In this document: in pieces, positions 2,758-19,034 of the stretch
Position numbering within the stretch: the stretch's first letter is position 1
How the letters are laid out: every line of letters begins with the position of its first letter
DNA from: Micromonospora sp. HM5-17
GTDB taxonomy: Bacteria > Actinomycetota > Actinomycetes > Mycobacteriales > Micromonosporaceae
Assembly (NCBI RefSeq): GCF_003762835.1
Contig: NZ_RJWA01000001.1
Location: 1-64,000, forward strand
Length of the DNA stretch: 64,000 nt
Direction: 5' to 3'
Translations under genes and position numbers: made by a program
The notes under the pieces: generated by a model
What the model was told of the DNA's origin: nothing
What the model saw: the letters and a program-made list of their open reading frames with translations, nothing else
Databases searched by the model: none

Positions 2758-4194
2758 TCACCGGCCCGGCGGATGCGCCCCCGACTTCGACACCGGTCGG
2801 CCGGACGCGCTCACCGGCGCATCCCAGAACGGGTCGTCGTCGGCCACCCGGGCGCGGGCCCGCCGCGCCTGCCTACTGAGCTGGCGGCGGGCGACGGAGT
2901 CGGCCAGGACACGGGCCGGGCGGCGGAGCAGGTACGGCGCGACCAGGAGCACCGCCAGAGCGACCGCGATTCCGAGCAGCACCTGGCTGAGCGTCCCGAG
3001 ACGGTTGGCCGGTGCCACGGCGGCAGCGTCCACCCCGACCCCCGCGGGCAGCGGCGTGGTGACCGCGGCGACCGGGTCGACGGTGCCGTCCCTGACCGTC
3101 GCGAGCACCTGCCGGGTCACCTCGGCGGCGCGTAGTTCGGGATGGGCCGACCGGAGCAGGGCGACCGTGCCGGCCACGAACGCGGCCGCGTACTCGGCAC
3201 CGCTGCCGGGTCGACCGATGCTCGCCACGCCGACGCCGGGAGCCAGCAGGTCCACCGCGTCGCCCGGGTGGTTTTCGGCCGGCTGCCGGTCCGGCCCGAT
3301 CGCGCCGACGCGGAGCAGGCCGTCCGCCCGAGCAGCCCCGGCCGACGCGGGCAACACCACGATCACGTCGTGCCCGAGCGCGGCGCTGACCGCGGCCCGC
3401 ACCGCCGGGTTCTCGGCGTCGACGTCGGCACCGACCAGGATGACCTGGACGCCGGACGCGACGGCGACATCGATGCCGGTCGCCGCGAGGCGAGACGAGA
3501 GCCTGCCGGAGCCGGCCTTGACGGGTACGACCCGGGCCCCGGGTGCCACCCCGAAGCTCTCACCCCCGGCGCCGTCGTCACCGGCGACGATGCCGGCCAG
3601 CGCGGTTCCGGAGCCGCCGCAGCCGGTGTCGCCACGGCCGGAACCGCGGACCAGGTCGACGCCGACCGCGACCCGGCCGGCGAGTTCGGGAGTCGCGCCG
3701 TCCACGCCGGAGCCGACGATCCCGACCTTGACTCCTGACCCGTTCGCCACCGTCCAGGCCCGGCTCGGCGTCAGGAGCGCCTGCCCCCAGAACGCCTCCG
3801 GGCCGCCGGGCTGACGCTCGCAGGTCGACGCCGTCGTGCCACTCGCCGGCAGCGGGCCGTGGCGCACCTCGGCGCCGACCGCGTCCCACGGCAGGACGAG
3901 GTGCCAGCCCGCGCGCAGCCGGGTCGGGTCCGACAGCCGGCCGCCGTCGGGCTGGACCCGCCCCGAGTTGAGTTCGAAGATCTCGCCGGCCCGGCCCGGG
4001 TCGCCCAGGAAGCGGGCCGCGATCTCCCACAGGTTCTCCGGCTTGCCCTGGTAGGAGTCGGCCACCGTGTAATACAACTGGTTCACCGCGCCATCCGCGG
4101 GTGGCGCGGCCCGGACGGGGAGCGGCGATCCGACGGTCACCGTGGCCGCCAGCACCGCCGCGAGCACCGCGCCGCGCAGGGTCATCCTCCGCAT
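2758..4194 (-). CDS. Mycosin-like S8 pseudoprotease, type VII associated
   Basis: 478-residue protein with an N-terminal signal sequence (about 1-30), a LysM-like segment (about 40-105), a subtilisin/mycosin fold and a C-terminal membrane helix (about 405-425) followed by a basic tail, the topology of ESX mycosins (MycP). Every catalytic position is altered. The Asp motif reads VGIVGSGVD where I-D-(T/S)-G is expected (about 160). The His motif reads GGSGTALAGIVAG, with Ser for His (about 196). The Ser motif reads GSGAEYAAAFVAG, with Glu in place of the GTS serine (about 333). The surrounding glycines and helices are kept, so this looks like a maintained pseudoenzyme. The ATG at 4194 follows GAGGG and lies 5 bp after the preceding stop. 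Last clear gene of the operon. Confidence 0.85.
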   Translation of the reverse strand: MRRMTLRGAVLAAVLAATVTVGSPLPVRAAPPADGAVNQLYYTVADSYQGKPENLWEIAARFLGDPGRAGEIFELNSGRVQPDGGRLSDPTRLRAGWHLVLPWDAVGAEVRHGPLPASGTTASTCERQPGGPEAFWGQALLTPSRAWTVANGSGVKVGIVGSGVDGATPELAGRVAVGVDLVRGSGRGDTGCGGSGTALAGIVAGDDGAGGESFGVAPGARVVPVKAGSGRLSSRLAATGIDVAVASGVQVILVGADVDAENPAVRAAVSAALGHDVIVVLPASAGAARADGLLRVGAIGPDRQPAENHPGDAVDLLAPGVGVASIGRPGSGAEYAAAFVAGTVALLRSAHPELRAAEVTRQVLATVRDGTVDPVAAVTTPLPAGVGVDAAAVAPANRLGTLSQVLLGIAVALAVLLVAPYLLRRPARVLADSVARRQLSRQARRARARVADDDPFWDAPVSASGRPVSKSGAHPPGR

Positions 4195-4199
4195 CGCCC

Positions 4200-5864
4200 T
4201 CACCACTCGGACTTCTCGACGAGGGCCCACTCGTGGTCGTCGTTGGCCTGGCAGGGGGCGAGCGCGAGTCGGGCGTCGCGGCCGCCGTCGCCCCGGCCCG
4301 GCACGTCGAGGCACATGTTGGACGCCGTGTTGCGCAGCCAGTAGTACTGGAGGCCCTTGGAGCTCTTCTTCGGCTCCAGCCGGAAGTACTGGTTGTCCCG
4401 GTCGAAGCAGCCCGTCTCGTTGAGCCCGGTGCCCGCCGCCACCGCCTCGAGGCCGGGCGGGTCGATGCAGAACTTGTCGTCGATGTTGCGGATCCAGTAG
4501 AGCTGGTTGCCGGTTCCGTCGACGGCGCGCGGCTCGAACCACCACTCCTGGTTGTCCTCGATGTTCTTCGCGCACGGGAACTGGTTCACCGGGCCGTCCC
4601 GGTCGCCCGCCCCGTGGCCGGGCACGTCGACACACATCTTGGTGACCAGGTTGACGATGAAGTACGGCCCGTAGCGGTCGGCGGAGCGGTCAGCCCCCTT
4701 GATCGCGGGCTGGTTGTCCCGGGTCTTGGGCTTCGAGGTCGTCTGCCTCGACTTCGGCGAGGAGGACGAGGGGGAGGTGGTGGGCGGGGTGAGCACCGGT
4801 GCCTGCAGCCGGGGGTCCTTGCTGTACTCGGCTTCCGCCCGGGTCACCGCCTCGGCGAGCGCGGTCACCGGGGCCGCCTCGTCACCGCGGGCGAAGGCGG
4901 CTAGGGCCGGGCCGTACTGGCCGCCGGCCTGCTTGATCAGCTTGCACATGGTGCGGCCGAGTTCCGGGATCGCCACGGCGGGGTCCCACGGCGACTTGGT
5001 GGCGGCCGACGTCGCGTGGGCCGACCATACCGCCGGGGTGAACTGGGCGATGCCCTGCTCGCCGGCGGGCCCGAGCCGGTCCGGGTCGAACCCGGAGGTC
5101 ACCATGATCTGCGCCGCGACCCGGGCGGGCGGCATGTCGGCACAGATCTTCCCGGCGGCGACGACCGCTTTCACGTACGGGGTGGGCACCGGCACCACGG
5201 CGCCAGCGGGCGAGGGCGTGGCGGCGGGTGCCGACGACGTCGGGCCGCTGGCGAACGCCGGCTGGAGGGCGTACCAGCTCGCGTACCGCTCCACGGTGTT
5301 GACATAGTCCTGAACGTCGCCGGGAACCCCGCCGGCCATGATCACCTGGCGCATGTCCCGCCGGTACGCCGCCAGCGCGATGCGCCACGGGTCCTCGTCG
5401 AGGTGCACGGCCCGCGCCTGCCCGACGAGCCGGCACATCAGCCGCGCGAGGGCGGTGATGGCGGCCCTGCGGTCGGTCGGCTGGGCACCGGGCCACGGCA
5501 CGTTGTCCTGCCACTGCGCGGGGGTCAGCGCGGCCACCCCGACCGCGCCGTTCTCACGCATCTCGGGGACCGGCTGGTTGCCGAACCCCGACGCGACCAT
5601 GATCTGGCCGGCGAGCCGGGCCGGGGTGAGCGCGGGGCAGGAGGACGCCGCGCTGACGAGGGTCCGCACGTCCGACGCGGGGATCCGGTCGCCCTCCAGC
5701 GGCTCGGCGGCGCTGGCCGCCCGCCGGGCCACCAGGCCGCCGGCACCGCTCAGGATGGCGAGCGCCAGCACGACCCCCAACGCCACCGGACGGGCCGGTC
5801 GCGGTCGCGGCACACGGAACCCCTTCCGCTCGGTGGCACTCTGTTTCTCGCCGCGGGTGAGCAC
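4200..5864 (-). CDS. Secreted degenerate transglycosylase with ricin-type lectin
   Basis: 554 residues with a basic N-terminus, then a membrane/signal helix (about 22-45). Two tandem lysozyme-like modules follow (about 75-200 and 240-330). Module 2 has SGFDPDRLGPAGEQGIAQF, the soluble-lytic-transglycosylase pattern, but the catalytic Glu position (E-S-G-F) is Thr; module 1 has Ala there. A Ser/Thr/Pro/Lys linker leads to a C-terminal ricin-B beta-trefoil (about 400-554) with paired cysteines and three repeats ending in NQEWWF, NQYFRL and DHEWAL. The likely role is non-catalytic cell-wall or glycan binding at the secretion site. GTG start at 5864 preceded by GGAAGG. Located between an unknown gene and the pseudo-mycosin, same operon. 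Confidence 0.75.
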   Translation of the reverse strand: MLTRGEKQSATERKGFRVPRPRPARPVALGVVLALAILSGAGGLVARRAASAAEPLEGDRIPASDVRTLVSAASSCPALTPARLAGQIMVASGFGNQPVPEMRENGAVGVAALTPAQWQDNVPWPGAQPTDRRAAITALARLMCRLVGQARAVHLDEDPWRIALAAYRRDMRQVIMAGGVPGDVQDYVNTVERYASWYALQPAFASGPTSSAPAATPSPAGAVVPVPTPYVKAVVAAGKICADMPPARVAAQIMVTSGFDPDRLGPAGEQGIAQFTPAVWSAHATSAATKSPWDPAVAIPELGRTMCKLIKQAGGQYGPALAAFARGDEAAPVTALAEAVTRAEAEYSKDPRLQAPVLTPPTTSPSSSSPKSRQTTSKPKTRDNQPAIKGADRSADRYGPYFIVNLVTKMCVDVPGHGAGDRDGPVNQFPCAKNIEDNQEWWFEPRAVDGTGNQLYWIRNIDDKFCIDPPGLEAVAAGTGLNETGCFDRDNQYFRLEPKKSSKGLQYYWLRNTASNMCLDVPGRGDGGRDARLALAPCQANDDHEWALVEKSEW

Positions 5865-5880
5865 GGCCGTGTTCCTTCCG

Positions 5881-6525
5881 TCAGTTGCCGGAGAGCTGCC
5901 CGAGCAGCTCGTCCTCGGTCGGGATGTCCACGTTGTCGGTCCAGCGCAGGGTGCTGACGACCGCGTCGAAGAGCAGGACGATGGCCTGCACCGGCTCGGC
6001 GTCGACATCGCCGTCGCTCAGCACGGTGAAGGTCAACACTCCCCAGACGCCGGGCGCGTCCGGCGCCGCCACGTAGTAGTTGACCCGTACGGCCGGCGCC
6101 GTGCGCTTGATCGGGCGGCTGTCGACGACCTGGCGGATCCGGACGGCCGGGCAGCCGCCGATCTCCAGTGCCATCCCGTCGGGGCCGGCGTCGGCGAGGA
6201 GCGCGTCCAGCACGAGCTTCGGGTCCTGGGGCGAGTCGACGTCCTCGATCACCGACAGCAGGAGCGTGCCGGGCAGTCGCATCCCGTGCATCTCCCGCAC
6301 CGGCAGCACCACCGCCCGGGCACCCTGCTGTTCGGCCTCGTCGGTCGCCTCGGTGAGTTCCCGACGCAGCATCCGCCGCCACGGTCCGGCCTTGTCCCGG
6401 GGCAGCGTGTCCGGCAGGGCGTGCCGGACGATCGCGTCGATGGTTCGTTCGCGGACCCGGCGGAACTCGGGCGTGGTGGGGATGTGTACCCAGCCGTCGG
6501 GGATGATGAGCCCGAAATCGATCAT
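5881..6525 (-). CDS. Hypothetical type VII-associated protein
   Basis: 214 residues, no signal peptide or membrane helix. Begins MIDFGLIIPDGWVHIPTT and contains an amphipathic helical region (about 20-75) followed by alternating beta-type segments. Composition suggests a cytosolic alpha/beta protein; I do not recognise the family. The ATG overlaps the stop of the preceding gene (ATGA at 6522-6525), so it is co-translated with its neighbour. Its fixed place between the coiled-coil export candidate and the secreted lectin protein suggests a chaperone or assembly function (EspG-like by position only, not by sequence). Confidence 0.7.
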   Translation of the reverse strand: MIDFGLIIPDGWVHIPTTPEFRRVRERTIDAIVRHALPDTLPRDKAGPWRRMLRRELTEATDEAEQQGARAVVLPVREMHGMRLPGTLLLSVIEDVDSPQDPKLVLDALLADAGPDGMALEIGGCPAVRIRQVVDSRPIKRTAPAVRVNYYVAAPDAPGVWGVLTFTVLSDGDVDAEPVQAIVLLFDAVVSTLRWTDNVDIPTEDELLGQLSGN

Positions 6526-7220
6526 CAGGATTCCTGCCTGGCCGCCGGTACGAACCGTAGGGGTGCCAGGTCGCCCCCCGGCTCGGCACCGAACTGGTTG
6601 GCGATCATGTGCATCACCGCCTCGACTCCGGGGCCGATCACCGCCAGCTGGTCCACACCGGTGACGCGCGTCGTCAGCAGGACGTCGACGTCACCCGTCG
6701 GTGCCTCCAGGCGCAGCGCGGCGGTGACCCGGCCGTGCAGGCCCTCGCCCTCCGACTGGGCCAGCGCGAGCACCCACACGCCGTCACCGTGGTCCGTGGT
6801 GACGTACTCGACGTGCGGCTCCCGTACGTCGTCGGGGAAGCCCTCCGCGCCGACCAGGTCCATCAGGTAGGCCGAGTCGCCGGGACGGGCCTCGCGGAAC
6901 TCGGCCAGGACCAGCAGCGGAAGCCAGCGCGCCTCGTCGCCGAGGAAGCCGGCGCCCCAGATCAGGCGGCAGTTCCGGGGCAGGCTGTCGGCGCGCTCCA
7001 GCAGGTCACGCGCCACCGCCGCGCCCATCTCGCCGGTGCTGAATGGGAACTCCTCCGCGGCGTCGGCGGGCCAGGCGGCGCGGGCGGCGGCCACCTTGTC
7101 GCCCACCCAGGCGTCCAGCCGCTCCGCCACGGATCCGGCCCAGGCGCTCCGCTCCGCGGCGTCGCTTCCGGCCGCCGGTACCCAGTCCCAGTACCAGGCC
7201 ACCTCGAGGTCGGTCCTCAT
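6525..7220 (-). CDS. Hypothetical type VII-associated protein
   Basis: 231 residues beginning MRTDLEVAWYWDWVPAAG. Soluble alpha/beta composition without signal peptide, membrane helices or recognisable enzyme motif. The start at 7220 is chosen because the ATG overlaps the stop of the preceding gene (ATGA); a longer in-frame reading upstream has no Shine-Dalgarno support. The stop likewise overlaps the next start. Strict four-base coupling on both sides ties it to the secretion operon. Function unknown; a cargo-specific chaperone is one possibility. Confidence 0.7.
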   Translation of the reverse strand: MRTDLEVAWYWDWVPAAGSDAAERSAWAGSVAERLDAWVGDKVAAARAAWPADAAEEFPFSTGEMGAAVARDLLERADSLPRNCRLIWGAGFLGDEARWLPLLVLAEFREARPGDSAYLMDLVGAEGFPDDVREPHVEYVTTDHGDGVWVLALAQSEGEGLHGRVTAALRLEAPTGDVDVLLTTRVTGVDQLAVIGPGVEAVMHMIANQFGAEPGGDLAPLRFVPAARQES

Positions 7221-8404
7221 CAGACGCCCTCGAGTGCCTCGTGCTGGGTCGCCTGCATACCCGCGATGATCAACCCGGCGCCGAGGTTGAACAGTTGGTT
7301 CAGCCCGCCCCACGAGGCGAATATCCACCTCAGACCGCTCGCCGTGTGGCCGAAGAAGTTGCCGAGGGCGGAGATGCCGCTCAGGAAGCCCAGGTCCTTG
7401 AAGACGTTCGTGCCGAAGAGCTGACTGAACCAGCTCTTCCCCACGTCGAAGAAGCCGGGCCGGGGCGCGCCGATCGCCGGCGGCCGGCTGAGGTCGAACA
7501 GCTCGATGACCTGCCCGCCCGGCCGGAAGTCCGGGTTGATCTTGAGGTGGGGGAACGTCTTCAGGAGTTTGGTGAACGCGTTGATCTGCTTGCCGAAGGC
7601 ACCGAAGGCCGCACCCAGTCCGGCGAAGCCGAGTCCGACGGCGTCGAGTACGACGCTGAGCACGCTGCCGTCACCGCCGGCCAGCAACACACTGTCGGCT
7701 ATCAGCAGGACGGCCCCGGCGACGGCGCCGGCTATCGCGAGGACGTTCAGCCCGGGAATCAGGAAGGCCAGCGCGGTCAGGACCATGGCGATGATCCCGA
7801 ATGCCTCGCTGATCTTCTTGAAGACGGCCATGACCCGCCAGTTGATCTTGTCGGTCAGCCCGTCGTCGTACCTCTTGCAGTTCACCGCGTCGCCGAACCG
7901 CTTGCCGGCCACGTCCAAGGCGTCCAGCGCGCGCGTCAGCCGGTTCTTCGCCGCGGTGATCTGCGCGTTCGCGGCGTCCTGCGCCCGCCGTTTGTCGTCG
8001 CCCTTCTGCTCCTCCTCCGGCGGGATCGTGCCGTCCGGGCCCGGCTGCGGGTCCGGCATGGCGTTCGCCCGGGTCAGGGAGGCGTTGCCCTCCTCCTCGT
8101 CCCGGGTGGCCGCGTTCACCTCGTCGATCGCGTGCGCCAGCTCCGGCTCGTACTTCTTGATCTCGGTGGCGACGTCCCGATAGCGCACCGCGGCCTTGCT
8201 GAGCTTGTCCTTGAGGTCCTCGGCGTCCTTCTTGAGCGGCACGACCCACTGACCCCGCAGGCCCTCCTCGCCAGCGTCGACGATCTTCTGAAGCCTGGTC
8301 ACCGCGTCGTCGATGGTCGCCGAGATGTGCTCGTAGCGCTTCCGCGCGGCCTCGATCTGGGTCAGGTCGGCGGCCCTGAGGGTGGCGAGCCGGTCGTCGC
8401 TCAC
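7220..8404 (-). CDS. Large coiled-coil protein with hydrophobic core, putative T7SS effector
   Basis: 394 residues. The N-terminal third (about 1-190) is a long charged helical/coiled-coil region of the size of a WXG/LXG domain, with an acidic Pro-rich insert (about 115-140). Then comes a strongly hydrophobic stretch (about 195-265: IIAMVLTALAFLIPGLNVL and AIAGAVAGAVLLIADSVLL), resembling glycine-zipper or membrane-inserting segments. The C-terminal 130 residues contain several aromatic helices. A GTG start overlaps the stop of the small WXG100 gene (GTGA). The order WXG100 gene, then long helical protein, then two small soluble proteins resembles effector-chaperone cassettes of type VII systems. 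A pore-forming or membrane-active cargo is plausible but unproven. Confidence 0.7.
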   Translation of the reverse strand: MSDDRLATLRAADLTQIEAARKRYEHISATIDDAVTRLQKIVDAGEEGLRGQWVVPLKKDAEDLKDKLSKAAVRYRDVATEIKKYEPELAHAIDEVNAATRDEEEGNASLTRANAMPDPQPGPDGTIPPEEEQKGDDKRRAQDAANAQITAAKNRLTRALDALDVAGKRFGDAVNCKRYDDGLTDKINWRVMAVFKKISEAFGIIAMVLTALAFLIPGLNVLAIAGAVAGAVLLIADSVLLAGGDGSVLSVVLDAVGLGFAGLGAAFGAFGKQINAFTKLLKTFPHLKINPDFRPGGQVIELFDLSRPPAIGAPRPGFFDVGKSWFSQLFGTNVFKDLGFLSGISALGNFFGHTASGLRWIFASWGGLNQLFNLGAGLIIAGMQATQHEALEGV

Positions 8405-8682
8405 TTCTTCTCCTCGAGGCTGTCCAGCATCTGCCGCTCCGCTTCGCTCCAGGCCTGGTCAGCGCCCTCCACCGACTCACGGAACTTCTTCATCGACTCG
8501 ACCATCTTGTCGCGGCTGCCGGTCCAGTTGTCGGCGAAGTCGCCCATCGACAGGTTCGCGTTGAGCTGGCCCCAGTGGCCCTTGTACTCGTTCTGGAAAT
8601 CCAGCGCACCCTCGAACTGGCTGATCAGCTCGCTGAGGTCACGGGCCAGGTCGGCCAGGTCCTTGACCACGATGTCGGCCAT
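8401..8682 (-). CDS. WXG100 family protein
   Basis: 93 residues predicted as two helices separated by a turn near N-W-T-G-S (about residue 53), which takes the place of the WxG turn of ESAT-6-like proteins. The second helix ends with QAWSEAERQMLDSLEEKK. Length and helical hairpin fit the family. ATG at 8682 is preceded by AAGGCGG within the 13-bp gap after the ATPase stop; an in-frame GTG at 8685 is a less likely start. Its position directly after the ATPase and before the hydrophobic protein suggests a secreted substrate or heterodimer partner. Confidence 0.8.
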   Translation of the reverse strand: MADIVVKDLADLARDLSELISQFEGALDFQNEYKGHWGQLNANLSMGDFADNWTGSRDKMVESMKKFRESVEGADQAWSEAERQMLDSLEEKK

Positions 8683-8695
8683 CACACCACCGCCT

Positions 8696-11600
8696 TCACT
8701 GTCGTTGTTCGTCGCCGGCCAGCAGCGGGATCTGCACGGTCTGCAGGGTGCCGTCGCCCAGGTGCACCCGGGCGACGCCGGGCACCACCCGCTCGGCCAG
8801 GTGGGCCCGGGACAGCCGGACGCCGACCAGATCCCCGGCGCTCAGGGTCGGCGGGGAGAGCAGCGCGCCGCGCCGGTTCTTCTTGATCTCCACCTGCCAG
8901 CCGGTGAAACCCATCGCCACCGAGGAGACCTCGCCGGCGATGACGACGGCCCGCCGCCGCCCGGACGCGCCCCGGACCAACTGGCGCAGCCAGTCCCGGC
9001 ACGGTACGTCGCGCCACGCCTCGGCGTCGTCGATCAGCAGCGCGACCGGGCCGTCCCCGGGATCGACCAGGGCCGCGAACTCCTCCTCGGTCGGGTTCTC
9101 CCCGGTGACGAACCCCCGCACCCCGGTACGGCCCGTGAGGTCGCTCAGCGGTGTCCGCCCCGGGGCGCCGATGACCAGCTCGGTACCGGAGCGGAGCAGC
9201 GACTCCGCCATCACGCGCAGCGCGGTGCTGCGGCCGGACCGGGACGGCCCGGCGATCAGGAAGGTCGGCTGGTCGCCGAGCAGATCCATGCCGATCGGCT
9301 CCAGCTCGTCGCCCCCGACGCCGAGCAACGCCCAGCCGGGTCGCGGCGTGCCGACGGACGCCCAGGCCTGGTCGAAGGTCAACTGGCTGGGCATCGCGGC
9401 GATCGTGCTGGGGCGCTGCTTCCGGGGGACGCCCGCCTCGCGCTCGGTCAGCCGGGCCGCCACGGTGTGCATCGCGGCGACCTGTGCCGGACCGCTCGGG
9501 TCCGCGGCCAGCAGGGCGACCTGCACCTCGACCGCGCTGATCGCCCGGTAGCCACGGCCGGGCGGCAGGTTCTCCGGGATCTTCCGAGGGTTCAGCCCGG
9601 CCATGCTGGCGTCGGCGCGGTCCGAGAGCCGCAGCACCAGTTTCTCCTCGCAGAGGGAACTGATCCGGCCACTGAGCAGGCTGTGGTCGCCCGCGACGAT
9701 CACATGGACGCCGGCGCTGGCACCCTCCCGCATCAGGACGTACAGGATGTCGGTCAGCGCCCCGCCGTCGTGCTCGCTGAGGGTTCCCATGAACCCCTCC
9801 CAGCGGTCGAGCAGCAGCAGGATGTGCGGCAGTCGCTCGTCGACGGGGGCGGCCGCCCGCTGCTCGGTCAGGTCGGCGAACCCGCCCTCGCCGAGCACCT
9901 TCTGGCGGCGCTGCACCTCGTCGCGTAGGCGGTGCAGCAGGCGGCTGGCGCGCTCCACGTCGGTGCGCTGCACGACCGCGCCGCAGTGCGGAAAGCGGGT
10001 GAGCGGCAGCAGGGCGCCGTTGCCGCAGTCCAGCCCGTACAGGTGGAGGTCGGCGACGCTCGCCGCGCAGGCCGCCGCGGTGGCGATCGTCCGCAGCGCC
10101 TGCGACCGACCCGACCGGGGGGCGCCGACGATGTGCAGGTGCCCGAAGGTGGCCAGGTCGATCGTCAGCGGCACCTGCTGCTGCGTTTTCGGCAGGTCCT
10201 GCGTCCCCCAGGCGAACGACGGCTCGCCCCGGCCGTGCCGAACCGGTTCGTCGGGCAGGTCGACCACCGACACGGTCGGCAACGGCGGCAGCCAGGGCCG
10301 GCGCTGCGCGGGCAGGCCCAGCATGTCGCTGGCCTGGCGGATCGCCGACACCAGCACCGACAGGTCCGTCGCCTCGTCGGTCTCGGCGGCGCTCCGGGGC
10401 CGCTGCGGCACCGGCCGACCCAGGTCGAGCCAGCCCACCGGGTGCAGGAACGGCGTGGCGACGGCACTGGACCGGTTCCGCTGCGGCCGACGGCCGCCGA
10501 CCCGGCCGGTCTGGAACGGGATGAGCGAGCTGTGCCCGAGCCGGGCGTACGCCCGTCCCGGGGTCGCGGCCGAGATGCTCGCCGCGTCCCGGGCGTCGAT
10601 GACGTCGGCGCTCTCCCCGGCGTCGGTCACCCGCAATGCCACCCGCAGGTTGGTGTTGGCGCGGATCTCCGCGTTCACCACCCCGTTGGGACGCTGGGTG
10701 GCCAGGATCAGGTGGATGCCGAGCGAGCGGCCCCGCTGGGCGATGTTGACCAGACCGGTGACGAAGTCCGGCAGTTCCCGGACCATCGAGGCGAACTCGT
10801 CGATGATGATCAGCAGCCTCGGAATCGGCTCCGGCACCGGGCGCCGGGTGGCGTAGTCGAGGTAGTCCTCGAGATCCTTCGCGCCGACCGCGGCGAGCAG
10901 GTGCTCCCGGTGCGTCAGCTCGGCGCTGAGCGAGGTGAGGGCACGCTCCACCAGGAACGTGTCGAGGTCGGTGACCATGCCGACGGTGTGCGGCAGGTCG
11001 ACGCAGTCCTTGAACGCGGCGCCGCCCTTGTAGTCCACGAGCACGAAGTTCATCGCGTCGGGGCGGTTCGCCACCGCGAGCGACGCCACCAACGTCTGCA
11101 GGAACTCCGACTTGCCCGCACCGGTGGTGCCCGCGACCAGGCCGTGCGGCCCGTGCTGCACCAGGTCCAGCGCGAACGGGCCGTCCAGGCTGTACCCGAC
11201 CAGCGCCCGGGTGCTGCGGGGCGAGGAGGTCCACCGGGCGCTGATCGCGGCCGGCGTCGGGTCCTCCAGGCCCAGCACCTCCAGCAGGCGCGCGGAGGTC
11301 GGCAGTGCGGCGTCGCTGTGGGTGTCGCTGACGTCGCGCACCGGTGCGAGCCGCCGCGCCACCGTCGGGAACCAGTCGTCGATGACCTCGTCGGCCTGGA
11401 TGTTCTCGATCGTCTCGGCGCGCTGCTGACGCAGGGTGGTCGGCAACCCGTCGCCGCCGAGGACCACGGTCGTGCACTCCTCCGGGAGGGTGCGCTCGTC
11501 ACTGTCGACGCAGATGAAGTAGACGCCGACGGCCGGGCCGCCCAGCAGGATGGAGACCACGCCGGGCAGGGCACGCAGCCGCCGGGCGCCGTCCAGCACG

Positions 11601-13066
11601 ACGACCACGTCGGGGTCGCTCGTCACCACGCCGGAGCCGGCGTTCAGCCGGGCCTGCCGCCGGGCTTCGATCAGTTCGATCAGCTCGGCGATCCGGCGGG
11701 CGATCGTCTCGGCGTCCGTGCCGAGCAGCGTCAGGGTCTGCTGCCCCAGCAGCGGGCGGGTGTGCGGCAGCCAGGCGGCCCACTCCCACAGCGCGCCGCC
11801 GCCCGGGTCGGTGAGCACATAGATCTGCAGGTCCCGGGGGCTCTGTGCGACGGCGAGCTGTCCGACCATCCAGCGGGCCAGGCGGCGTGGCCACTCGCCC
11901 CGCCCGGCGACCCCGACCACGCCCGCCTGGACGATGGAGAAGGCGACCGGTACGTCGTACAGGCGCCGCTCGGTGCGCCGGATCTGGTCGGCCACCTCCA
12001 CCTTGATCCGGCTGGGCAGATCCGCGATACCGACCCGGACCACGAGATGGTCGGGGTCGGTACGGCGGCGCTCCCACAACCGGGCACGCGGACCGGTCGC
12101 CACGATCAGCAGCTCGGCCGGGTCCGGGGTGGCGACCCGGCGGTCGTGGCGCTCCAGGACGATCGCCTCGGCGATGTCCTCCTCGATCGCGGCCACCCGC
12201 GCCCGGTGCTCGGCGAGCCGGCTGCGGTGGCTGCGGCTGCCCTGCCGGCGGCTGGACCACCAGTTGGCGACCACCATCACCGGCGACATCGCCGCGAACA
12301 TCAGGTAGATCGGGTTGCGCAGGACGAGGGCCATGATGCCGCCGAACGCGGCCGGCAGCGCGGCGGCCAGCCAGGGCAGGGCGTTCGGCGTCGGCGCCTT
12401 CGGCTCGGCCGGAATCTTGAACGTGTCCGGGCGGACCGGCGGCAACAACCGCGGCGGACGGTTGTAGTCGAGGTACTCGCTCTCCGCCGAGGGCTCGATC
12501 ACCGCGTCTGGGCAGCGGACCGGGTGCGCCTCCAGCGCGGTGCCACCCACGATCAACTGCGCGGTCTCCCGCCAGACCACCTCGCCGGTGCCGAGTTCCT
12601 CCCGGTCCAGCAGCAGGCCACCGTCGACGGCCCGGACGTGGACCTCGGCGTCGAAGGTGACCCGGACGACGGCGGCCACCGCGGGCACGTCGTCGGCCAG
12701 CCGGACGGCGCAGGTGGCGGCCGAGCCGATCCGGTGCTCGCCCGGGCCGAGGGACCAGATCCGACCGGCGCCGGCCCGGGTCACGGCCCGGATGGTGACC
12801 AGGCCCCGCGTCTCGTACGGCGCCGGACCCGGCCCGCCGACCCAGAGCACCGAGCCCTCGTGCACACCACTGGCGGACAGCGGGAGGTCGAGGTCGAGCG
12901 GGCGGTCGTCGAGGTAGACCGGTCCGGCGAGCCGGCCGTGCGCGGCGGGATCGAGGCTGTCCAGCAGGTTCTTGACGATGTCCCGCAGCGGGGTGGCGGG
13001 ATCGGCGTCCACGACCACGTCGGCCGACCACGCCTGCGGCGACGCCAGGGTGATCAGCATACGCAC
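8696..13066 (-). CDS. eccC: Type VII secretion FtsK/SpoIIIE ATPase (EssC/EccC-like)
   Basis: About 1456 residues. The N-terminus (1-200) has a ubiquitin-like/FHA-type region, then two membrane helices (about 230-275), then three FtsK/SpoIIIE ATPase domains. Domain 1 has an intact Walker A (GTTGAGKS, K near 650) and Walker B (LLIIIDEFASM). Domains 2 and 3 have Arg for Lys in the P-loops (GAPRSGRS near 986, GPSRSGRS near 1278) with Walker B-like LLLLDRWEG and VALLIDDAEA. This is the motor of ESX/WXG100 secretion; FHA fused to all three ATPase domains in one chain resembles firmicute EssC. GTG at 13066 follows GAAGAGG; ATG at 13060 is an alternative. No eccB, eccD, eccE or yukD/essB-type gene is visible nearby. 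Confidence 0.93.
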   Translation of the reverse strand: MRMLITLASPQAWSADVVVDADPATPLRDIVKNLLDSLDPAAHGRLAGPVYLDDRPLDLDLPLSASGVHEGSVLWVGGPGPAPYETRGLVTIRAVTRAGAGRIWSLGPGEHRIGSAATCAVRLADDVPAVAAVVRVTFDAEVHVRAVDGGLLLDREELGTGEVVWRETAQLIVGGTALEAHPVRCPDAVIEPSAESEYLDYNRPPRLLPPVRPDTFKIPAEPKAPTPNALPWLAAALPAAFGGIMALVLRNPIYLMFAAMSPVMVVANWWSSRRQGSRSHRSRLAEHRARVAAIEEDIAEAIVLERHDRRVATPDPAELLIVATGPRARLWERRRTDPDHLVVRVGIADLPSRIKVEVADQIRRTERRLYDVPVAFSIVQAGVVGVAGRGEWPRRLARWMVGQLAVAQSPRDLQIYVLTDPGGGALWEWAAWLPHTRPLLGQQTLTLLGTDAETIARRIAELIELIEARRQARLNAGSGVVTSDPDVVVVLDGARRLRALPGVVSILLGGPAVGVYFICVDSDERTLPEECTTVVLGGDGLPTTLRQQRAETIENIQADEVIDDWFPTVARRLAPVRDVSDTHSDAALPTSARLLEVLGLEDPTPAAISARWTSSPRSTRALVGYSLDGPFALDLVQHGPHGLVAGTTGAGKSEFLQTLVASLAVANRPDAMNFVLVDYKGGAAFKDCVDLPHTVGMVTDLDTFLVERALTSLSAELTHREHLLAAVGAKDLEDYLDYATRRPVPEPIPRLLIIIDEFASMVRELPDFVTGLVNIAQRGRSLGIHLILATQRPNGVVNAEIRANTNLRVALRVTDAGESADVIDARDAASISAATPGRAYARLGHSSLIPFQTGRVGGRRPQRNRSSAVATPFLHPVGWLDLGRPVPQRPRSAAETDEATDLSVLVSAIRQASDMLGLPAQRRPWLPPLPTVSVVDLPDEPVRHGRGEPSFAWGTQDLPKTQQQVPLTIDLATFGHLHIVGAPRSGRSQALRTIATAAACAASVADLHLYGLDCGNGALLPLTRFPHCGAVVQRTDVERASRLLHRLRDEVQRRQKVLGEGGFADLTEQRAAAPVDERLPHILLLLDRWEGFMGTLSEHDGGALTDILYVLMREGASAGVHVIVAGDHSLLSGRISSLCEEKLVLRLSDRADASMAGLNPRKIPENLPPGRGYRAISAVEVQVALLAADPSGPAQVAAMHTVAARLTEREAGVPRKQRPSTIAAMPSQLTFDQAWASVGTPRPGWALLGVGGDELEPIGMDLLGDQPTFLIAGPSRSGRSTALRVMAESLLRSGTELVIGAPGRTPLSDLTGRTGVRGFVTGENPTEEEFAALVDPGDGPVALLIDDAEAWRDVPCRDWLRQLVRGASGRRRAVVIAGEVSSVAMGFTGWQVEIKKNRRGALLSPPTLSAGDLVGVRLSRAHLAERVVPGVARVHLGDGTLQTVQIPLLAGDEQRQ

Positions 13067-13156: not shown

Positions 13157-13453
13157 TTACTTGTTCAGCGAGCCGGCGAGCTGGCTGTCCATTTCCCGCA
13201 GCGCGTCGACCGCCTTGTCGAGCCACTCGGAGAGCAGGGAGAGGTTTTCCATGAGCTCGTTCGCGGCGTTCACGAACTCGGTGTGGACCTCCTCGAACCT
13301 GCCGGACGCCTGGTCGGTGACGAACCCGGAGGTGGTGAGGTTGTCGACAATGGACTTGCACTCGGTCAGCCGCGCGTCGATCTCGTTCTTGTTGTTGCGC
13401 ATCCGGGTCGCGCTGTCCGACATCTCCGAATAGGTGATGTTGAGATTCGCCAT
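13157..13453 (-). CDS. WXG100 family protein
   Basis: 98 residues, two long helices with a central turn at LTTSGFVTDQASGRF where the WxG motif normally lies (the Trp is absent). C-terminal helix LSEWLDKAVDALREMD. Start ATG at 13453 with GGAGGG 8 bp upstream. First gene of the minus-strand operon, so the promoter probably lies in 13454-13661, shared with the divergent gene at 13662. Probably the EsxA/B-like substrate required by the ATPase encoded next. Confidence 0.88.
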   Translation of the reverse strand: MANLNITYSEMSDSATRMRNNKNEIDARLTECKSIVDNLTTSGFVTDQASGRFEEVHTEFVNAANELMENLSLLSEWLDKAVDALREMDSQLAGSLNK

Positions 13454-13661
13454 CGGATCGTCCCTCCACGTGGTGCGAGCCGCGCTGCACGCCCGGCCCG
13501 GCGGTTGGCAACGCGGACAAACCTAAGAACGGTTTCCAACTCCGGTCCAGATCGACGACCGCGACCGTGGGCCCTAGGGCCCACGGTCCTCGTTGACAGT
13601 CGGCACCAGGTCCGCTGACGATCTCGGGTGGCCGCTGGCGGGGTGTGTCGAAGGGTGGACG

Positions 13662-14369
13662 ATGAGCTACGAGCGGTCCGGCGCGTGGACCGTGGACTAC
13701 GCGTTACGCGTCCTCGCCACCGGATGCGCCGTGTCGCGCCGGCCCGTCCCGGAGGTCGGAGCCCTGGTCCTGGGCCCGGAGTCGGTCCTGTTGCGGCTGA
13801 CCACCCCCGAGGAGGCACCGCCGCCGGGCTGGACGGTGGAGGACGACGGCCGCGCCTGGCGGTCGTCTCTCGCCTGGGTGCGGGGGGCGGAGGTTGACGA
13901 GCGGATCCCGGCGCCGTACCCGATGCTCGTCTCGGTCGGGGTGATCGACAGCGGCCGGTTGCTGCTCAACCTCGTCGCCGCGGAGGGCCTGGTCGGCGTC
14001 GAGGGAGACCCCGAACTCGCCCGGAACCTGGTCCGGGCGTGGGCGCGCCGGCTTGCCGCCAGTCCCTGGGCGGCCGGGATACGCGTGGTGCGGGTCGGCT
14101 TCCCGCCGGACAATGACGCCGCGGGGTGGGATGTGGCCCGGCTGGCGGGGACGCCCGTCCTGGACAATCCGGCGGGCGGGGTCGTGTTCTTCGCCGACCC
14201 GCCGCTGGGATACGACGTTCATCTGGTCAACCAGCTGCTCGGCGACCCGGCGCGGCGCTGGTCGGTGGTGGCGGTCGGCGTGCCGGACCCGACCTGGCGG
14301 TTCGTCGTGGGGGTGGACGGCACCGTCGACACCGGACTGCTGGCGGAGCCGGTACATATGCGCCTGTGA
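13662..14369 (+). CDS. Hypothetical protein, divergent from type VII operon
   Basis: 235 residues starting MSYERSGAWTVDYALRV. Soluble alpha/beta protein; segments such as YPMLVSVGVIDSGRLLLNL followed by an acidic strand resemble a module found inside larger actinomycete proteins that combine LysM or transcriptional-activator domains, but no catalytic motif is seen. ATG chosen at 13662 because AAGGGTGG precedes it; an upstream GTG would add 23 residues. It diverges from the WXG100 gene and is followed 59 bp later by a LuxR regulator, so it may help control the secretion operon. Function unknown. Confidence 0.7.
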   Translation: MSYERSGAWTVDYALRVLATGCAVSRRPVPEVGALVLGPESVLLRLTTPEEAPPPGWTVEDDGRAWRSSLAWVRGAEVDERIPAPYPMLVSVGVIDSGRLLLNLVAAEGLVGVEGDPELARNLVRAWARRLAASPWAAGIRVVRVGFPPDNDAAGWDVARLAGTPVLDNPAGGVVFFADPPLGYDVHLVNQLLGDPARRWSVVAVGVPDPTWRFVVGVDGTVDTGLLAEPVHMRL

Positions 14370-14428: not shown

Positions 14429-14977
14429 ATGATCACGGATCCTGCCCCGCCGGGTGCCACCGGCGGCCGGATACGTATTGCGATCTCCAGCCCCGAGATC
14501 ATCGCCCACATCCGGCACGAGTTCGCCAGCAAGGGCCTGGATGTGCGGATCGACGGTCTGCCCGCGGTCGACGTGGTCGTGACACCGGGTGCCGGCGCCG
14601 CGCCCGCCACCGGTGCCCTCGCCGACGTTCTCAGTGGACTCGCCGGCCCGCGCAGCCGGAACCGGGATCCGGCCACCGCCCGATACCGCCTGGCGCTGGT
14701 CCCCCACCACCGCCCGACCCGCGCGGCCGGACGACTACCGGGTCATGCCGCCGACCCGCCGCGGTCGGACCGGCGCCGCCCCCTGTCCCCCCGCGAGGCC
14801 CAGGTGATGGACGGGATCAGCCGCGGGATGCGGAACGCGGACATCGCCGCCATGCTGCGCGTCGAGCTGAAGACCGTGAAGAACCACGTGAACCGCATCT
14901 TCGGCAAGCTGGGCGCCCGCAACCGGGTGGAGGCGGTGCTGATCTGGCAGCGCTACCGGGCCGCTTCCGCCCGGTGA
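14429..14977 (+). CDS. LuxR-family HTH regulator with atypical N-terminus
   Basis: 182 residues. The C-terminal third is a clear LuxR/NarL HTH (LSPREAQVMDGISRGMRNAD ... LKTVKNHVNRIFGKLGARNR). The N-terminal part begins like a receiver strand (RIRIAISSPEIIAHIRHEF) but has no phosphoacceptor Asp context (VVVTPGAGAA), so it is not a conventional response regulator. Regulators of this kind recur beside type VII loci in actinomycetes. The stop lies inside a 22-bp repeat that recurs at the end of the convergent AfsR-like gene. Confidence 0.8.
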   Translation: MITDPAPPGATGGRIRIAISSPEIIAHIRHEFASKGLDVRIDGLPAVDVVVTPGAGAAPATGALADVLSGLAGPRSRNRDPATARYRLALVPHHRPTRAAGRLPGHAADPPRSDRRRPLSPREAQVMDGISRGMRNADIAAMLRVELKTVKNHVNRIFGKLGARNRVEAVLIWQRYRAASAR

Positions 14978-15034
14978 TCGCCGCCGCCGTCGAGTGACCG
15001 CCTCCGTGAAGCGATCGCCGCCGCCGTCTAGTGA
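14976..15034. repeat. 22-bp direct repeat at convergent gene ends
   Basis: GATCGCCGCCGCCGTC followed by (G/T)AGTGA occurs at 14976-14997 and again at 15013-15034, with one mismatch. The first copy begins inside the stop codon of the LuxR gene and the second contains the TAG stop of the convergent AfsR-like gene. Probably a short tandem duplication in the intergenic gap; no terminator-like dyad is seen here. Confidence 0.75.
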
Positions 15035-17805
15035 TCGTGCCCCGCGCCGGCGTAGTCGACCAGACCCGCCAGAAAGGCGCTCACCTCGGCCGCCTCCTCG
15101 GCGTCCAGCTCCTCGAAGCGGGCGAGAGCCCGACGGGCGAGGGCGACCGCCTGTGCGTCGCCCGCCCGCACCCGCGCCAACCCGAACAGGGCCAGCCCCT
15201 CGTGGTAGCGGTCACCGGCGTCCTCGCTGATCCGTAGCGCCTCACCGAACGTCGCCTCGGCCGCCTCCTGCTGCCCCAGGCCGTGCCGGGCCAGGCCAAG
15301 GTTGATCAGGAGGTTCGCCTCGAGGATCTGGCTGCGGGACCGACGGGCGTACTCCAGCCCCGGCAGCCCGTGGCGCATCGCCTCCGCCCACCGCCCGGTC
15401 TCGGCGGCGAGCTCGCAGACGGTGTCGTACGCCGAGGCCAGGTAGTAGTCGCGCCCCTCCCGGCGCGCGAGCTCCAGCGCCTCCATGGCCGGCGCGCGGG
15501 CCGCGTCGTACTCCTTGGCCTCACGCAACGTGGACGCCAGGTTGGCGAGCAGGCTGATCCGGTGCTGCCAGTCCTCCGGCTCGACGAGCAGCTCCAACCC
15601 GCGATGGAGCTGGGCGACCGCGGTGTCGTTCCGGCCCAGGCGGGAGTAGGCGACGCTGGAGTGGTTCAGCAGGACGGCCTGGGCCACCCGGCTGCCCAGG
15701 CTCTCGGCGGCGCGCATCGCCACCTGCAGCAGGTCCAACCACTCCAGCGGCCGTGCCGCGACATAGAAGTAGTGGAACAACAGATAGGTGAGGTGTATCG
15801 CCGGCCCGTGCTGCCCGTCCCGGGCGGCCCGGCGGACCACCGCGGTGATGTTCTGCCACTCGGTGCCGCACCAGCGCACGTAGTCGCGCTGCCCGTCGAA
15901 GCGGACCGGGGGTACGTCGCTGTGCGGCGGCTCGAACGGCAGGTCCCGGCCGACCTTGTCGTCTCCGATCCGGGAGAGCGTCACGCGGTACCAGGAGAGG
16001 ACCCGGGACAGGGCGTCCCGCCGCTCGCCGGGCGGGAGCTCGGCCGAGAGCTCCGCGGCGTACGCCCGGACGAGATCGTGCATGGTGAACCGGTTGCCGT
16101 CCTGCTCCAGCAGGCAGAGCGCGCACAGCCGGTCCAGCAGCACCGCGGCCCGCTCCAGCCCGACCCCGAACAGCGCCGCCGCGGTGTGCCGGGTCACGCT
16201 CGGCCCGGGGAAGAGCCCGAGGAGCCGGAACGCCCGGGACGCGTCCTGGTCGAGCGCCGCGAAGGACCAGGACAGGACACCGCGTACGGAGCAGAGCGCG
16301 TCGTCGGCCAGTTGCAGCTCGTCCAGCCGATGCTGGATGTTCTCGAGCTGCGCGACGAGATCACCGATGCCGACGCCCACGGTCGACACCACCTTCTCGG
16401 CGGCGATCTGCAACGCCAGCGGCGACCGGTCACACAGCGTGGTGAGCCGGCGGGCGGAGGACAGCTCGGCCCGTACCCGGTCCTCGCCGATCAACGTGGT
16501 GAGCAGCCGCAACGATTCCTCGTCGGTCAGCGCCCCGAGCGTGATCCGACGGGCGCCGTGCCGGACGGCCAGCCCGGAGAGGCGGCTACGGCTGGTCACG
16601 ATGACGAAGCAACTGCTGCCACCGGGCAGCAGGTCCTCGACCTGTTCGCTGGACGCGGCGTTGTCGATAATCAGCAGCACCCGCTTGTCGGCCAGCATGC
16701 TGCGCCACAGCGCCGCCCGCTCCGCGCGACCGGTCGGAATGTTCCGGGCGCCGACGGAGGTCAGCAGGTGGTGCAGGGCGGCCTCGGGGGTCAGCGCGGT
16801 GTGCGACGGGTCGAACCCGCGCAGATTGATGTAGAGCTGCCCGTCGGGGTATCCGTCGCGCAGCAGGTGCCCGGCGTGTACGGCGAGCGTGCTCTTCCCG
16901 ATCCCACCGGCCCCCACGATCATGACGATCCGCCGGCGCGGCGTCGCCCCACCGCCCGAGCTCTCCACCAGGGCGAGCAGTTCGGCGGCCCGCCCGACGA
17001 AGGCGTCGGTGTCGTGCGGCAACTGGGCCGGCCGGAGGACCCCGGCGGCCGGCCGGGAGCGGTGGCGGCTGTCGTCGGCGAGGATCGCGGCGTGGCGGTC
17101 CCGGGTCTCCGGCGACGGGCTGATGCCCAGCTCGGCGGCGAGCCCTCGGCGCAGGTCCTCGTACTGGGCCAGGGCGTCGGCGGTACGTCCGGCGCGGTGC
17201 AGCGCGGTCATCAGCGTGCCGCGTAGCCGCTCGTCGAAGGGATGGGCCGGAACCTCGGCGAGCAGCCGGCCGATCACCTCCGGAAGCATGTCGGTACGGG
17301 CCCGTTCGGCGTGCTCGATGAGCAGGTGCAACCGCAGTCCGGCCAGCCGGACCCGGGCCTGCGCGACGAACGGCCCGGGTACGCCGGCGAACGGCGTACC
17401 GGCCGGCCACAGCCGGAGCGCCTGCTCGTACGCGTCGAGGGTGCCGCGAACCCGCGCCCGTTCGGCCAGGTCCTCGGCCACGGCGACGTCGAACACCTCC
17501 CGCTCCAGCCGGAGGCGGTAGCCGGCCCGGCTGCTGACCAGCCGCTCCTGTGCCGGCCCCAGGACGCGGCGCAGTCCGGAGAGATAGGTGTGCAGACTTC
17601 CGGCGGCGGTGGCGGGCGCCGACTCGCCCCAGACCCGGTCGATGAGTTGGCCCCGGGATACGGTCTCGCCGGCGCACAGGGCCAGGATGGCGAAGACCGC
17701 GCGTTGCTTGGGCGGCCCGAGTTCGATTTCGTTGTCGCCGACGAATGCGCGGAGGGTGCCCAGGCCCTCGACCCGCAACGGGCCATTGACCGTACTCGCT
17801 GCCAC
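15028..17805 (-). CDS. AfsR/SARP-family regulator with NB-ARC and TPR domains
   Basis: 925 residues. Domain order: OmpR-type winged helix (about 8-95, with LGPPKQRAVFAILALCAGE), bacterial transcriptional activation domain (about 98-245), an NB-ARC/STAND ATPase (P-loop GAGGIGKST near 300, Walker B VLLIIDN, a TSRSRL sensor), winged-helix linker and C-terminal TPR array (about 640-920). This is the AfsR-type architecture used for global control of secondary metabolism and development. The GTG at 17805 is preceded by GAGGAG at 7 bp; longer readings upstream lack such support. Convergent with the LuxR gene. Target genes cannot be read from the sequence. Confidence 0.92.
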   Translation of the reverse strand: MAASTVNGPLRVEGLGTLRAFVGDNEIELGPPKQRAVFAILALCAGETVSRGQLIDRVWGESAPATAAGSLHTYLSGLRRVLGPAQERLVSSRAGYRLRLEREVFDVAVAEDLAERARVRGTLDAYEQALRLWPAGTPFAGVPGPFVAQARVRLAGLRLHLLIEHAERARTDMLPEVIGRLLAEVPAHPFDERLRGTLMTALHRAGRTADALAQYEDLRRGLAAELGISPSPETRDRHAAILADDSRHRSRPAAGVLRPAQLPHDTDAFVGRAAELLALVESSGGGATPRRRIVMIVGAGGIGKSTLAVHAGHLLRDGYPDGQLYINLRGFDPSHTALTPEAALHHLLTSVGARNIPTGRAERAALWRSMLADKRVLLIIDNAASSEQVEDLLPGGSSCFVIVTSRSRLSGLAVRHGARRITLGALTDEESLRLLTTLIGEDRVRAELSSARRLTTLCDRSPLALQIAAEKVVSTVGVGIGDLVAQLENIQHRLDELQLADDALCSVRGVLSWSFAALDQDASRAFRLLGLFPGPSVTRHTAAALFGVGLERAAVLLDRLCALCLLEQDGNRFTMHDLVRAYAAELSAELPPGERRDALSRVLSWYRVTLSRIGDDKVGRDLPFEPPHSDVPPVRFDGQRDYVRWCGTEWQNITAVVRRAARDGQHGPAIHLTYLLFHYFYVAARPLEWLDLLQVAMRAAESLGSRVAQAVLLNHSSVAYSRLGRNDTAVAQLHRGLELLVEPEDWQHRISLLANLASTLREAKEYDAARAPAMEALELARREGRDYYLASAYDTVCELAAETGRWAEAMRHGLPGLEYARRSRSQILEANLLINLGLARHGLGQQEAAEATFGEALRISEDAGDRYHEGLALFGLARVRAGDAQAVALARRALARFEELDAEEAAEVSAFLAGLVDYAGAGHDH

Positions 17806-18948: not shown

Positions 18949-19034
18949 CCGGTTGCACACCGTGCCCGGCTCACTCGCGGCCAACGTCGGCGCTGGCCAC
19001 GCATCCCGCCCAACCGGCCGTGGGCGGATCGCGC

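What the first reader, a model, noticed from the sequence alone, without database searches (positions are those of the whole stretch)
2758..4194. Mycosin-like protease with all three catalytic residues replaced
The scaffold of a type VII mycosin is kept (signal peptide, S8 fold motifs, C-terminal membrane helix), but Asp, His and Ser are changed to Gly, Ser and Glu in otherwise conserved motifs. Simultaneous loss with a preserved frame suggests a structural role, in line with the known protease-independent role of MycP in ESX complex stability. It also carries a LysM-like segment before the S8 domain.
Basis: partly seen in the sequence, partly recalled or inferred. Interest (0 to 1): 0.72.

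Follow-up and report, generated by a model that had tools for sequence, protein, structure and literature searches.

The report
Dead mycosin protease with wall anchor
A soil-type bacterium carries a cell-surface relative of a secretion-system protease that has lost every catalytic residue, and it belongs to a large family of dead, probably wall-anchored relatives that look like structural parts of type VII secretion systems.

Summary
Window 2758-4194 (minus strand, 478 aa) is an intact mycosin-fold protein with catalytic Asp, His and Ser replaced by Gly161, Ser195 and Glu334, a LysM-like domain before the fold and a C-terminal hydrophobic helix. No other residues rebuild a triad: among seven clade members (window plus six) no His is invariant and the only invariant Ser lies outside the S8 domain.

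It is not a single oddity. It belongs to a LysM-plus-pseudo-mycosin family seen here only in Micromonosporaceae. All 89 LysM-type rows lack the catalytic Ser, 79 lack the His, 7 the Asp. With catalytic motifs masked, 57 non-redundant rows form one clade (100/99). So the losses were stepwise, not simultaneous. dN/dS is 0.16-0.53 in 19 pairs. The own genome also holds triad-bearing mycosins.

In the window it is the last gene of an operon with an EssC-type ATPase, a WXG100 protein, a second protein of that size and an SLT-like/ricin protein, without EccB or EccD. Best reading: a non-proteolytic, wall-tethered scaffold of a type VII secretion system (0.55). That function is inferred. MycP-like stabilisation of EccB cannot apply directly, and the gene pair can occur without this ATPase.

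The parts
2758..4194 (-). LysM pseudo-mycosin, 478 aa, last gene of the operon
3856..4080 (-). LysM-like domain, residues about 39-113
3046..3789 (-). S8 (mycosin-like) domain, residues about 136-383
3712..3714 (-). Asp site, now Gly161
3610..3612 (-). His site, now Ser195
3193..3195 (-). Ser (nucleophile) site, now Glu334
2926..2982 (-). C-terminal membrane helix, residues about 405-423
   Evidence: hydropathy; helix in model
4200..5864 (-). SLT-like repeats plus ricin-type lectin, 554 aa; partner gene; no Glu at the catalytic place of either SLT-like repeat (place recalled from the SLT motif)
   Evidence: longer ORF 4200-6008
5881..6525 (-). conserved operon protein, 214 aa, no family
6525..7220 (-). 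conserved operon protein, 231 aa, no family
7220..8404 (-). 394-aa protein with a hydrophobic middle, candidate membrane part or substrate
8401..8685 (-). protein of WXG100 size, 94 aa, no Pfam WXG100 match
8696..13060 (-). EssC/EccC-type FtsK ATPase with weak N-terminal YukD-like match; ORF to 13111
13157..13453 (-). WXG100 protein, 98 aa, first gene of the operon
13593..14369 (+). divergent 258-aa protein, homologous to the cytosolic part of a LysM-TM-cytosolic protein beside the same ATPase in G076

Best explanation
The protein is a catalytically dead mycosin: exported, held in the membrane by its C-terminal helix, with a LysM-like domain that should grip peptidoglycan and a pseudo-S8 domain used as a protein-binding scaffold. 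I think it works as a wall-tethered structural subunit (cap or anchor) of type VII secretion systems, here of an EssC-type system, together with the SLT/ricin protein encoded beside it. Shown by computation: fold, loss of the catalytic residues, hydrophobic ends, operon, family and purifying selection. Inferred: lack of activity itself, peptidoglycan binding, physical contact with the ATPase or its substrates, and the structural role.
For: No catalytic Ser in 89 of 89 LysM-type rows; oxyanion Asn also absent in the 22 of 89 rows printed. One clade 100/99 with catalytic motifs masked. dN/dS 0.155-0.533 in 19 pairs. Same operon with EssC-type ATPase in L049, L093, L094 and L097. Of 78 LysM-type genes in fetched loci, 28 have EccC/EssC within 10 kb, 44 have the SLT/ricin gene within 4 kb, 63 have at least one. 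In seven genomes (G010, G020, G034, G060, G079, G093, G120) a pseudo-mycosin of or near the window's sister group lies about 21-22 kb from an EssC-type ATPase of 47% identity (coordinates). Domain reassortment: beside a 75%-identical ATPase in G076, one protein fuses a related LysM module, a membrane helix and the domain that stands alone at window 13593-14369. Precedent: MycP1 and MycP5 with a mutated catalytic Ser still support secretion, and MycP stabilises the complex (PMC5156307, part 1 of 2; PMC5082899, passages; PMC8131196, passages).
Against: The module is separable. G029 and L095 have the pseudo-mycosin and SLT/ricin pair with no EssC or EccC called in the fetched stretch, and G029 has no EssC-type match at E 1e-200, although a canonical EccC lies about 20 kb away. 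G076 has the ATPase without the pair in the fetched stretch. 15 of 78 LysM-type genes had neither partner nearby. The six other genomes of the window's genus in the sample have no such ATPase at E 1e-200. The window gene's dN/dS (0.43-0.51) is higher than in two pairs of triad-bearing mycosins (0.21, 0.30), so constraint looks weaker. No interaction was tested.
Confidence: 0.55

Rival explanations
1. It is a receptor: the pseudo-S8 domain senses a ligand or peptide and the LysM domain reads wall state, in the manner of the subtilisin-like pseudoproteases CspC and CspA of spore germination.
For: Bacterial S8 pseudoproteases that act in signal reception are in print (PMC6636752 and PMC12880746, search listing with start of abstract only). 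The nucleophile site is diverse across the family (E, Q, R, D, H, P and others), as expected if the pocket binds different ligands. 50 of 78 copies have no EccC/EssC within 10 kb.
Against: CspC and CspA are called soluble in those abstracts, whereas this protein has a predicted membrane helix. T7SS genes are conserved neighbours in most of the window clade.
Confidence: 0.2
2. It regulates triad-bearing mycosins, for example by entering their trimeric cap in place of an active subunit.
For: LysM-type genes stand near triad-bearing mycosin genes in L064, L083 and L139. Triad-bearing mycosin-like proteins exist in the own genome. MycP5 forms a trimeric cap (PMC8131196, passages).
Against: No triad-bearing mycosin was found in the window operon. 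Of 15 EccC-bearing loci with both a LysM-type gene and a called non-LysM mycosin, that mycosin is itself dead in 12.
Confidence: 0.12
3. It is a decaying pseudogene.
For: All three catalytic residues are gone; L097 has lost the nucleophile segment; the member in G082 has its LysM and S8 parts in different frames.
Against: Open frame in the window and in the clade members, dN/dS below 1 in every pair tested, family-wide conservation including Cys125 and Cys192. Several matches are marked with one TGA; in the five I could place (G003, G006, G029, G067, G084) it is the gene's own stop, by the coordinates; the others were not checked.
Confidence: 0.02
4. It is an enzyme of another kind using the substituted Glu or another residue set.
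For: Glu sits at the nucleophile site in the window's tree clade and its sister group.
Against: No invariant His and no invariant Ser inside the S8 domain among seven clade members; L097 lacks the segment.
Confidence: 0.04

Closest known systems
Mycosins MycP1/MycP3/MycP5 (S8, TIGR03921) of ESX/T7SSa
   Same: S8 fold with MycP1 as top structural hit, hydrophobic N-terminus and C-terminal membrane helix, T7SS gene context
   Different: No catalytic triad, extra N-terminal LysM-like domain, below the TIGR03921 cut-off, no EccB/EccD found in the operon
CspC/CspA subtilisin-like pseudoproteases
   Same: Bacterial S8 fold without catalysis (search listing)
   Different: Those are spore germination proteins described as soluble; this one has a membrane helix and a LysM-like domain and lies in a T7SS-type operon
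T7SS variants T7SSb-T7SSj (EssC/TsxC systems)
   Same: EssC-like ATPase plus WXG100 protein
   Different: The survey PMC11217815 has no mention of LysM, Micromonospora or Actinoplanes in its main text (find) and gives only T7SSd as a new Actinomycetota variant (abstract; section 9). The T7SSd kinase was not found among the window operon proteins by Pfam or NCBIfam; TsdH and TsdI were not searched for. The window operon adds a pseudo-mycosin and an SLT/ricin protein

Membership tests
Mycosin (MycP) | S8 fold with Asp/His/Ser triad | tested here: not met
   Fold met, triad Gly/Ser/Glu
Mycosin (MycP) | TIGR03921 curated score | tested here: not met
   128.4 bits against 278.75
Mycosin (MycP) | Signal peptide and C-terminal membrane helix | tested here: met
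   Hydropathy only, no signal-peptide program; helix in the model
Mycosin (MycP) | Encoded with EccB, EccC and EccD | tested here: not met
   EssC-type ATPase present; the two EccB and two EccD genes found in the genome lie elsewhere
Mycosin (MycP) | Common descent with mycosins | tested here: met
   All dead rows except L073 form one clade beside triad-bearing mycosins, 97/89; the tree holds no general subtilisins, so it does not test descent against them
LysM domain | LysM sequence profile | tested here: inconclusive
   Pfam 1 of 22 at E 0.16; PDB profile best hit a LysM protein, E 0.0088; Foldseek E not significant
LysM domain | Binds peptidoglycan | not testable with these tools
   Needs a binding assay
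Type VII secretion system | EccC/EssC ATPase plus WXG100 protein | tested here: met
   ATPase 565 bits to TIGR03928, under its 778.4 cut-off; 98-aa protein matches Pfam WXG100, E 7.2e-12
Type VII secretion system | Secretes WXG100 proteins | not testable with these tools
   Needs secretion assays
SLT transglycosylase (partner gene) | SLT profile and catalytic Glu | tested here: not met
   16.3 bits against a 21.3 cut-off; Glu absent in both repeats of the window protein; motif position recalled, not from a call

The most novel reading that the evidence does not exclude
Micromonosporaceae have a type VII secretion variant (EssC-type ATPase, no EccB/EccD) whose outward-facing apparatus is built from retired enzymes: a LysM-tethered pseudo-mycosin and an SLT-like protein without its catalytic Glu, replacing the EccB-MycP periplasmic chamber. 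In canonical ESX loci of the same family the mycosin beside eccC is itself often dead.
Probability: 0.3. Interest if true: 0.78.

Novelty: new variant of a known kind. Interest (0 to 1): 0.6.

Why it matters
Mutants showed that MycP is needed for secretion while its protease activity is not. Here evolution appears to have done the experiment: a family-wide, long-lived set of mycosins without an active site, kept under selection. They let the scaffold role be studied apart from proteolysis, in soil-type actinomycetes, and they point to a T7SS arrangement with a wall-anchored part that I did not find described.

Tried and rejected
Rejected: decay (open frames, dN/dS below 1); a triad supplied by other residues; simultaneous loss of the triad. 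Tried without use: counting a Trp in the segment before the membrane helix as a sign of EccB docking; it was present in some and absent in others of the larger groups (LysM-type, D/R/A, D/H/S). Rfam over window 1-25000 gave nothing. A second look at the fold with VIA-align was not available. Family-wide counts with the alignment failed for technical reasons, so the number of pseudo-mycosins per genome is not given. The strand motif that I first read as the oxyanion Asn is another part of the pocket; the oxyanion Asn was read.

Weak control: in the class-wide search the window's own protein was itself reported only over its S8 part, so the span of a match there does not tell LysM-type from plain mycosins; the statement on genomes outside the family rests on the triads of the seven loci fetched and the absence of the LysM pattern in them.

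Rows and duplicates: the census has 89 LysM-type rows and 53 others. L041 and L067 are one gene fetched twice, as are L006/L069 and L012/L072. 13 of the 36 D/H/S rows score under 100 and are general subtilisins by my reading. L041/L067 was counted as LysM-type although its LysM part lies in another frame. L097 was not in the census. Domains with identical sequence were dropped before the census, and the trees used 89 of 129 rows after a cut at 80% identity. For the oxyanion Asn I printed 22 of 89 LysM-type rows and all 53 others. Gene calls come from a home-made script, and the neighbour labels from BLAST or phmmer against window and own-genome genes.

Full report
What is there. The minus strand of window 2758-4194 encodes an intact 478-aa protein. 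It has an S8 domain by Pfam and a sub-threshold match to the NCBIfam mycosin model. Its AlphaFold model has MycP1 as best PDB match, with many subtilisins close behind. Aligned with triad-bearing proteins of the same genome, the three catalytic positions are Gly161, Ser195 and Glu334.

Could another triad exist? Among seven members of the window clade (window, L049, L050, L093, L094, L095, L097) no His is invariant, and the only invariant Ser, Ser123, lies before the S8 domain. L097 lacks the nucleophile segment. Two cysteines, Cys125 and Cys192, are invariant there and nearly invariant in the 22-row alignment A1. Mycosins have a disulfide joining the N-terminal extension to the protease domain; that is recalled, not from a call.

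The LysM-like part. About 75 residues after the signal region are well conserved in the family (mean column identity 63% over 42 rows in A2, against 32% for the whole of A1). It models as beta-alpha-alpha-beta at pLDDT 93.9. Sequence and fold searches point to LysM but weakly, so 'LysM-like' is the right wording.

A family, not an oddity. Searching 150 genomes of the same family with the protein gave matches at E 1e-20 in 108; these include triad-bearing mycosins. A scan of genome contigs by one peptide pattern of the LysM region gave 51 loci, all from genera of Micromonosporaceae (titles; family for the genera printed there, and for Winogradskya, Catenuloplanes and Phytohabitans). In a class-wide sample of 197 genomes, 10 had a match at E 1e-60: three of the same family and seven outside it. 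The seven loci fetched from outside all keep Asp/His/Ser and showed no LysM pattern. The span of the matches cannot be used as a test, because the window's own protein was reported there only over its S8 part.

Census. Of 89 LysM-type rows, 0 keep the catalytic Ser (E 28, Q 25, R 11, D 9, H 8, P 4, A 2, G 1, M 1). 10 keep His, 82 keep Asp. Of 53 other S8 rows, 36 are D/H/S, 14 D/R/A, and one each D/H/A, D/H/G and D/R/G (recounted in part). The oxyanion Asn was present in all 36 D/H/S rows and absent at the aligned place in the dead rows printed (22 of 89 LysM-type, 17 of 17 others; L118 has an Asn one place off). This link is an internal control for the alignment.

Order of losses. On a tree of 89 non-redundant S8 domains with four catalytic motifs masked, the 57 LysM-type rows form one clade (100/99). 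All dead rows except L073 form one clade (97/89). The window's clade of 5 has 96/95 and the clade of 8 with its sister group 100/99. Simplest reading: Ser was lost once early, His later in several lines, and Asp last, in the window clade and L062. This contradicts 'simultaneous loss'. L073, a mycosin in an ESX locus of the window's own genome, has Ala for Ser and falls elsewhere, on a long branch.

Selection. Nei-Gojobori dN/dS in 19 pseudo-mycosin pairs ran from 0.155 to 0.533. The window gene against four relatives gave 0.43-0.51. In the same operon the ATPase gave 0.205 and 0.235, the SLT/ricin gene 0.38 and 0.53, and five other genes 0.20-0.37. Five pairs of D/R/A mycosins gave 0.25-0.47, two pairs of triad-bearing ones 0.21 and 0.30. 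High GC makes dS uncertain. This says purifying selection, weaker than on the ATPase or on the two triad-bearing pairs.

Neighbourhood. The window operon runs from a WXG100 gene at 13453 down to the pseudo-mycosin: WXG100, EssC-type ATPase (TIGR03928 565 bits, below its 778 cut-off), a 94-aa protein of WXG100 size, 394-aa, 231-aa and 214-aa proteins, an SLT-like/ricin protein, pseudo-mycosin. The order is the same in L049, L093, L094 and L097; in L049 the first small gene was not called. No EccB or EccD was found there; the two EccB and two EccD genes found in the genome are elsewhere. EccE was not searched for. Across 78 LysM-type genes in the fetched loci, 44 have the SLT/ricin gene within 4 kb, 28 have EccC/EssC within 10 kb, 63 have either and 15 neither. 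In seven genomes (G010, G020, G034, G060, G079, G093, G120) a pseudo-mycosin of or near the sister group lies about 21-22 kb from an EssC-type ATPase of 47% identity (coordinates); I did not fetch the whole stretch between them in all seven.

A domain reassortment links the LysM module to this ATPase. In G076 a 75%-identical ATPase operon lacks the SLT/ricin and pseudo-mycosin genes in the 20 kb fetched. Beside it stands a protein made of a LysM module, a membrane segment and a cytosolic domain; G006 has a similar one beside a 52%-identical ATPase. That cytosolic domain is homologous (E about 2e-60) to the 258-aa protein encoded just upstream of the window operon at 13593-14369, and to the corresponding proteins in L049, L093, L094 and L097. 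So the LysM module sits either on the cytosolic-domain protein (two cases) or on the pseudo-mycosin (five cases). These are few, and the EssC-type loci L179 and L180 showed neither.

Results against the reading. Actinoplanes philippinensis (L096, apparently the same as G029 from equal contig length) and A. xinjiangensis (L095) carry the pseudo-mycosin and SLT/ricin pair without EssC or EccC called in the fetched stretch. G029 has no EssC-type match at 1e-200, though it has canonical EccC genes, one about 20 kb away. The six other genomes of the window's genus in the sample have no such ATPase at 1e-200. The pair is therefore a separable module, and its dependence on this ATPase is not shown.

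A second dead group. Of 28 fetched loci with an EccC, 20 had a non-LysM mycosin in the census: 12 D/R/A, 1 D/R/G, 1 D/H/G (L087), 1 D/H/A (own L073) and 5 D/H/S (L064, L071, L083, L088, L139; L071 is from the own genome). The other eight include L078, L108, L117 and L136, whose mycosin was dropped as an identical copy, so overlapping fetches make these numbers rough. Two genomes with D/R/A mycosins (G107, G137) also have mycosins over the TIGR03921 cut-off elsewhere; their triads were not read.

The SLT/ricin partner. It matches SLT below the cut-off and ricin lectin above it. Among aligned homologues the second SLT-like repeat has Glu at the catalytic place in 0 of 48 rows (one of these, L062, is poorly aligned). 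The first has it in 23 of 49, but not in the window or its clade. The catalytic place is recalled from the SLT motif.

Mechanism. In ESX-5 a MycP5 trimer caps an EccB5 chamber and stabilises the complex through EccB5 and EccD5 (PMC8131196, passages). MycP mutants at the catalytic Ser still support secretion (PMC5082899, passages; PMC5156307, part 1 of 2). A dead mycosin can therefore be useful as a scaffold. Without EccB in the window operon its partner must differ. The LysM-like domain suggests the wall itself as the support, with the pseudo-S8 domain holding a system component or substrate near the channel. That chain is inference.

Known or new. Searches of the held open-access library: mycosin with type VII secretion and pseudoprotease (no paper); mycosin, catalytic triad, Streptomyces; mycosin, inactive, LysM, actinobacteria (20 of 51 listed); Micromonospora and mycosin; mycosin and catalytically inactive; MycP, protease-dead, EccB (20 of 93 listed); pseudoprotease and subtilase (20 of 77 listed). 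None of the listed titles and abstract starts describes these proteins. I saw passages of PMC10924467, PMC1779556 and PMC3482391, which speak of mycosins as proteases. The T7SS survey PMC11217815 (abstract and outline, find, section 9) does not mention LysM, Micromonospora or Actinoplanes. Supplements, most subscription journals and bioRxiv were not searched, so 'undescribed' means not found there.

Verdict. A confirmed pseudo-mycosin by sequence and a clade-wide family of them. It is a new variant of a known kind with a plausible, untested structural role in type VII secretion.

Noticed in passing
window about 600-2300: CRISPR-like array with 61-base period and a repeat containing GGATCACCCCCGCGTGCGCGGGGAGCAG, just beyond the 3' end of the pseudo-mycosin gene; cas genes not looked for.
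   Followed up: no
L073:9318-10466 (G000:C12), own genome: Mycosin in an ESX locus with EccB, EccC and EccD keeps Asp and His but has Ala for Ser: an apparently separate inactivation.
   Followed up: partly
L053, L054, L063, L066, L082, L109, L116, L118, L123, L126, L128, L129: Mycosins without LysM in EccC-bearing loci with His to Arg and Ser to Ala at the aligned sites (D/R/A): dead mycosins in canonical ESX loci.
   Followed up: partly
window 8696-13060: The EssC-type ATPase has a weak N-terminal YukD match (E 0.022), as if the ubiquitin-like component were fused to it.
   Followed up: no
L177:4215-5609 and L178:14600-16297: LysM-TM-cytosolic proteins beside EssC-type ATPases; the cytosolic domain stands alone in the window at 13593-14369.
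   Followed up: yes
L061:10129-12780: Right-handed beta-helix fused to an AAA ATPase with AAA_lid_6, next to a pseudo-mycosin of the sister group.
   Followed up: no
window 14429-14977 and 15028-18984: A protein whose C-terminus reads like a LuxR-type DNA-binding domain (by eye) and a large AfsR/SARP-type regulator next to the operon.
   Followed up: no
L067:9203-10707 (G082): The LysM part and the S8 part lie in different frames, a possible frameshift or assembly error in this one member.
   Followed up: no
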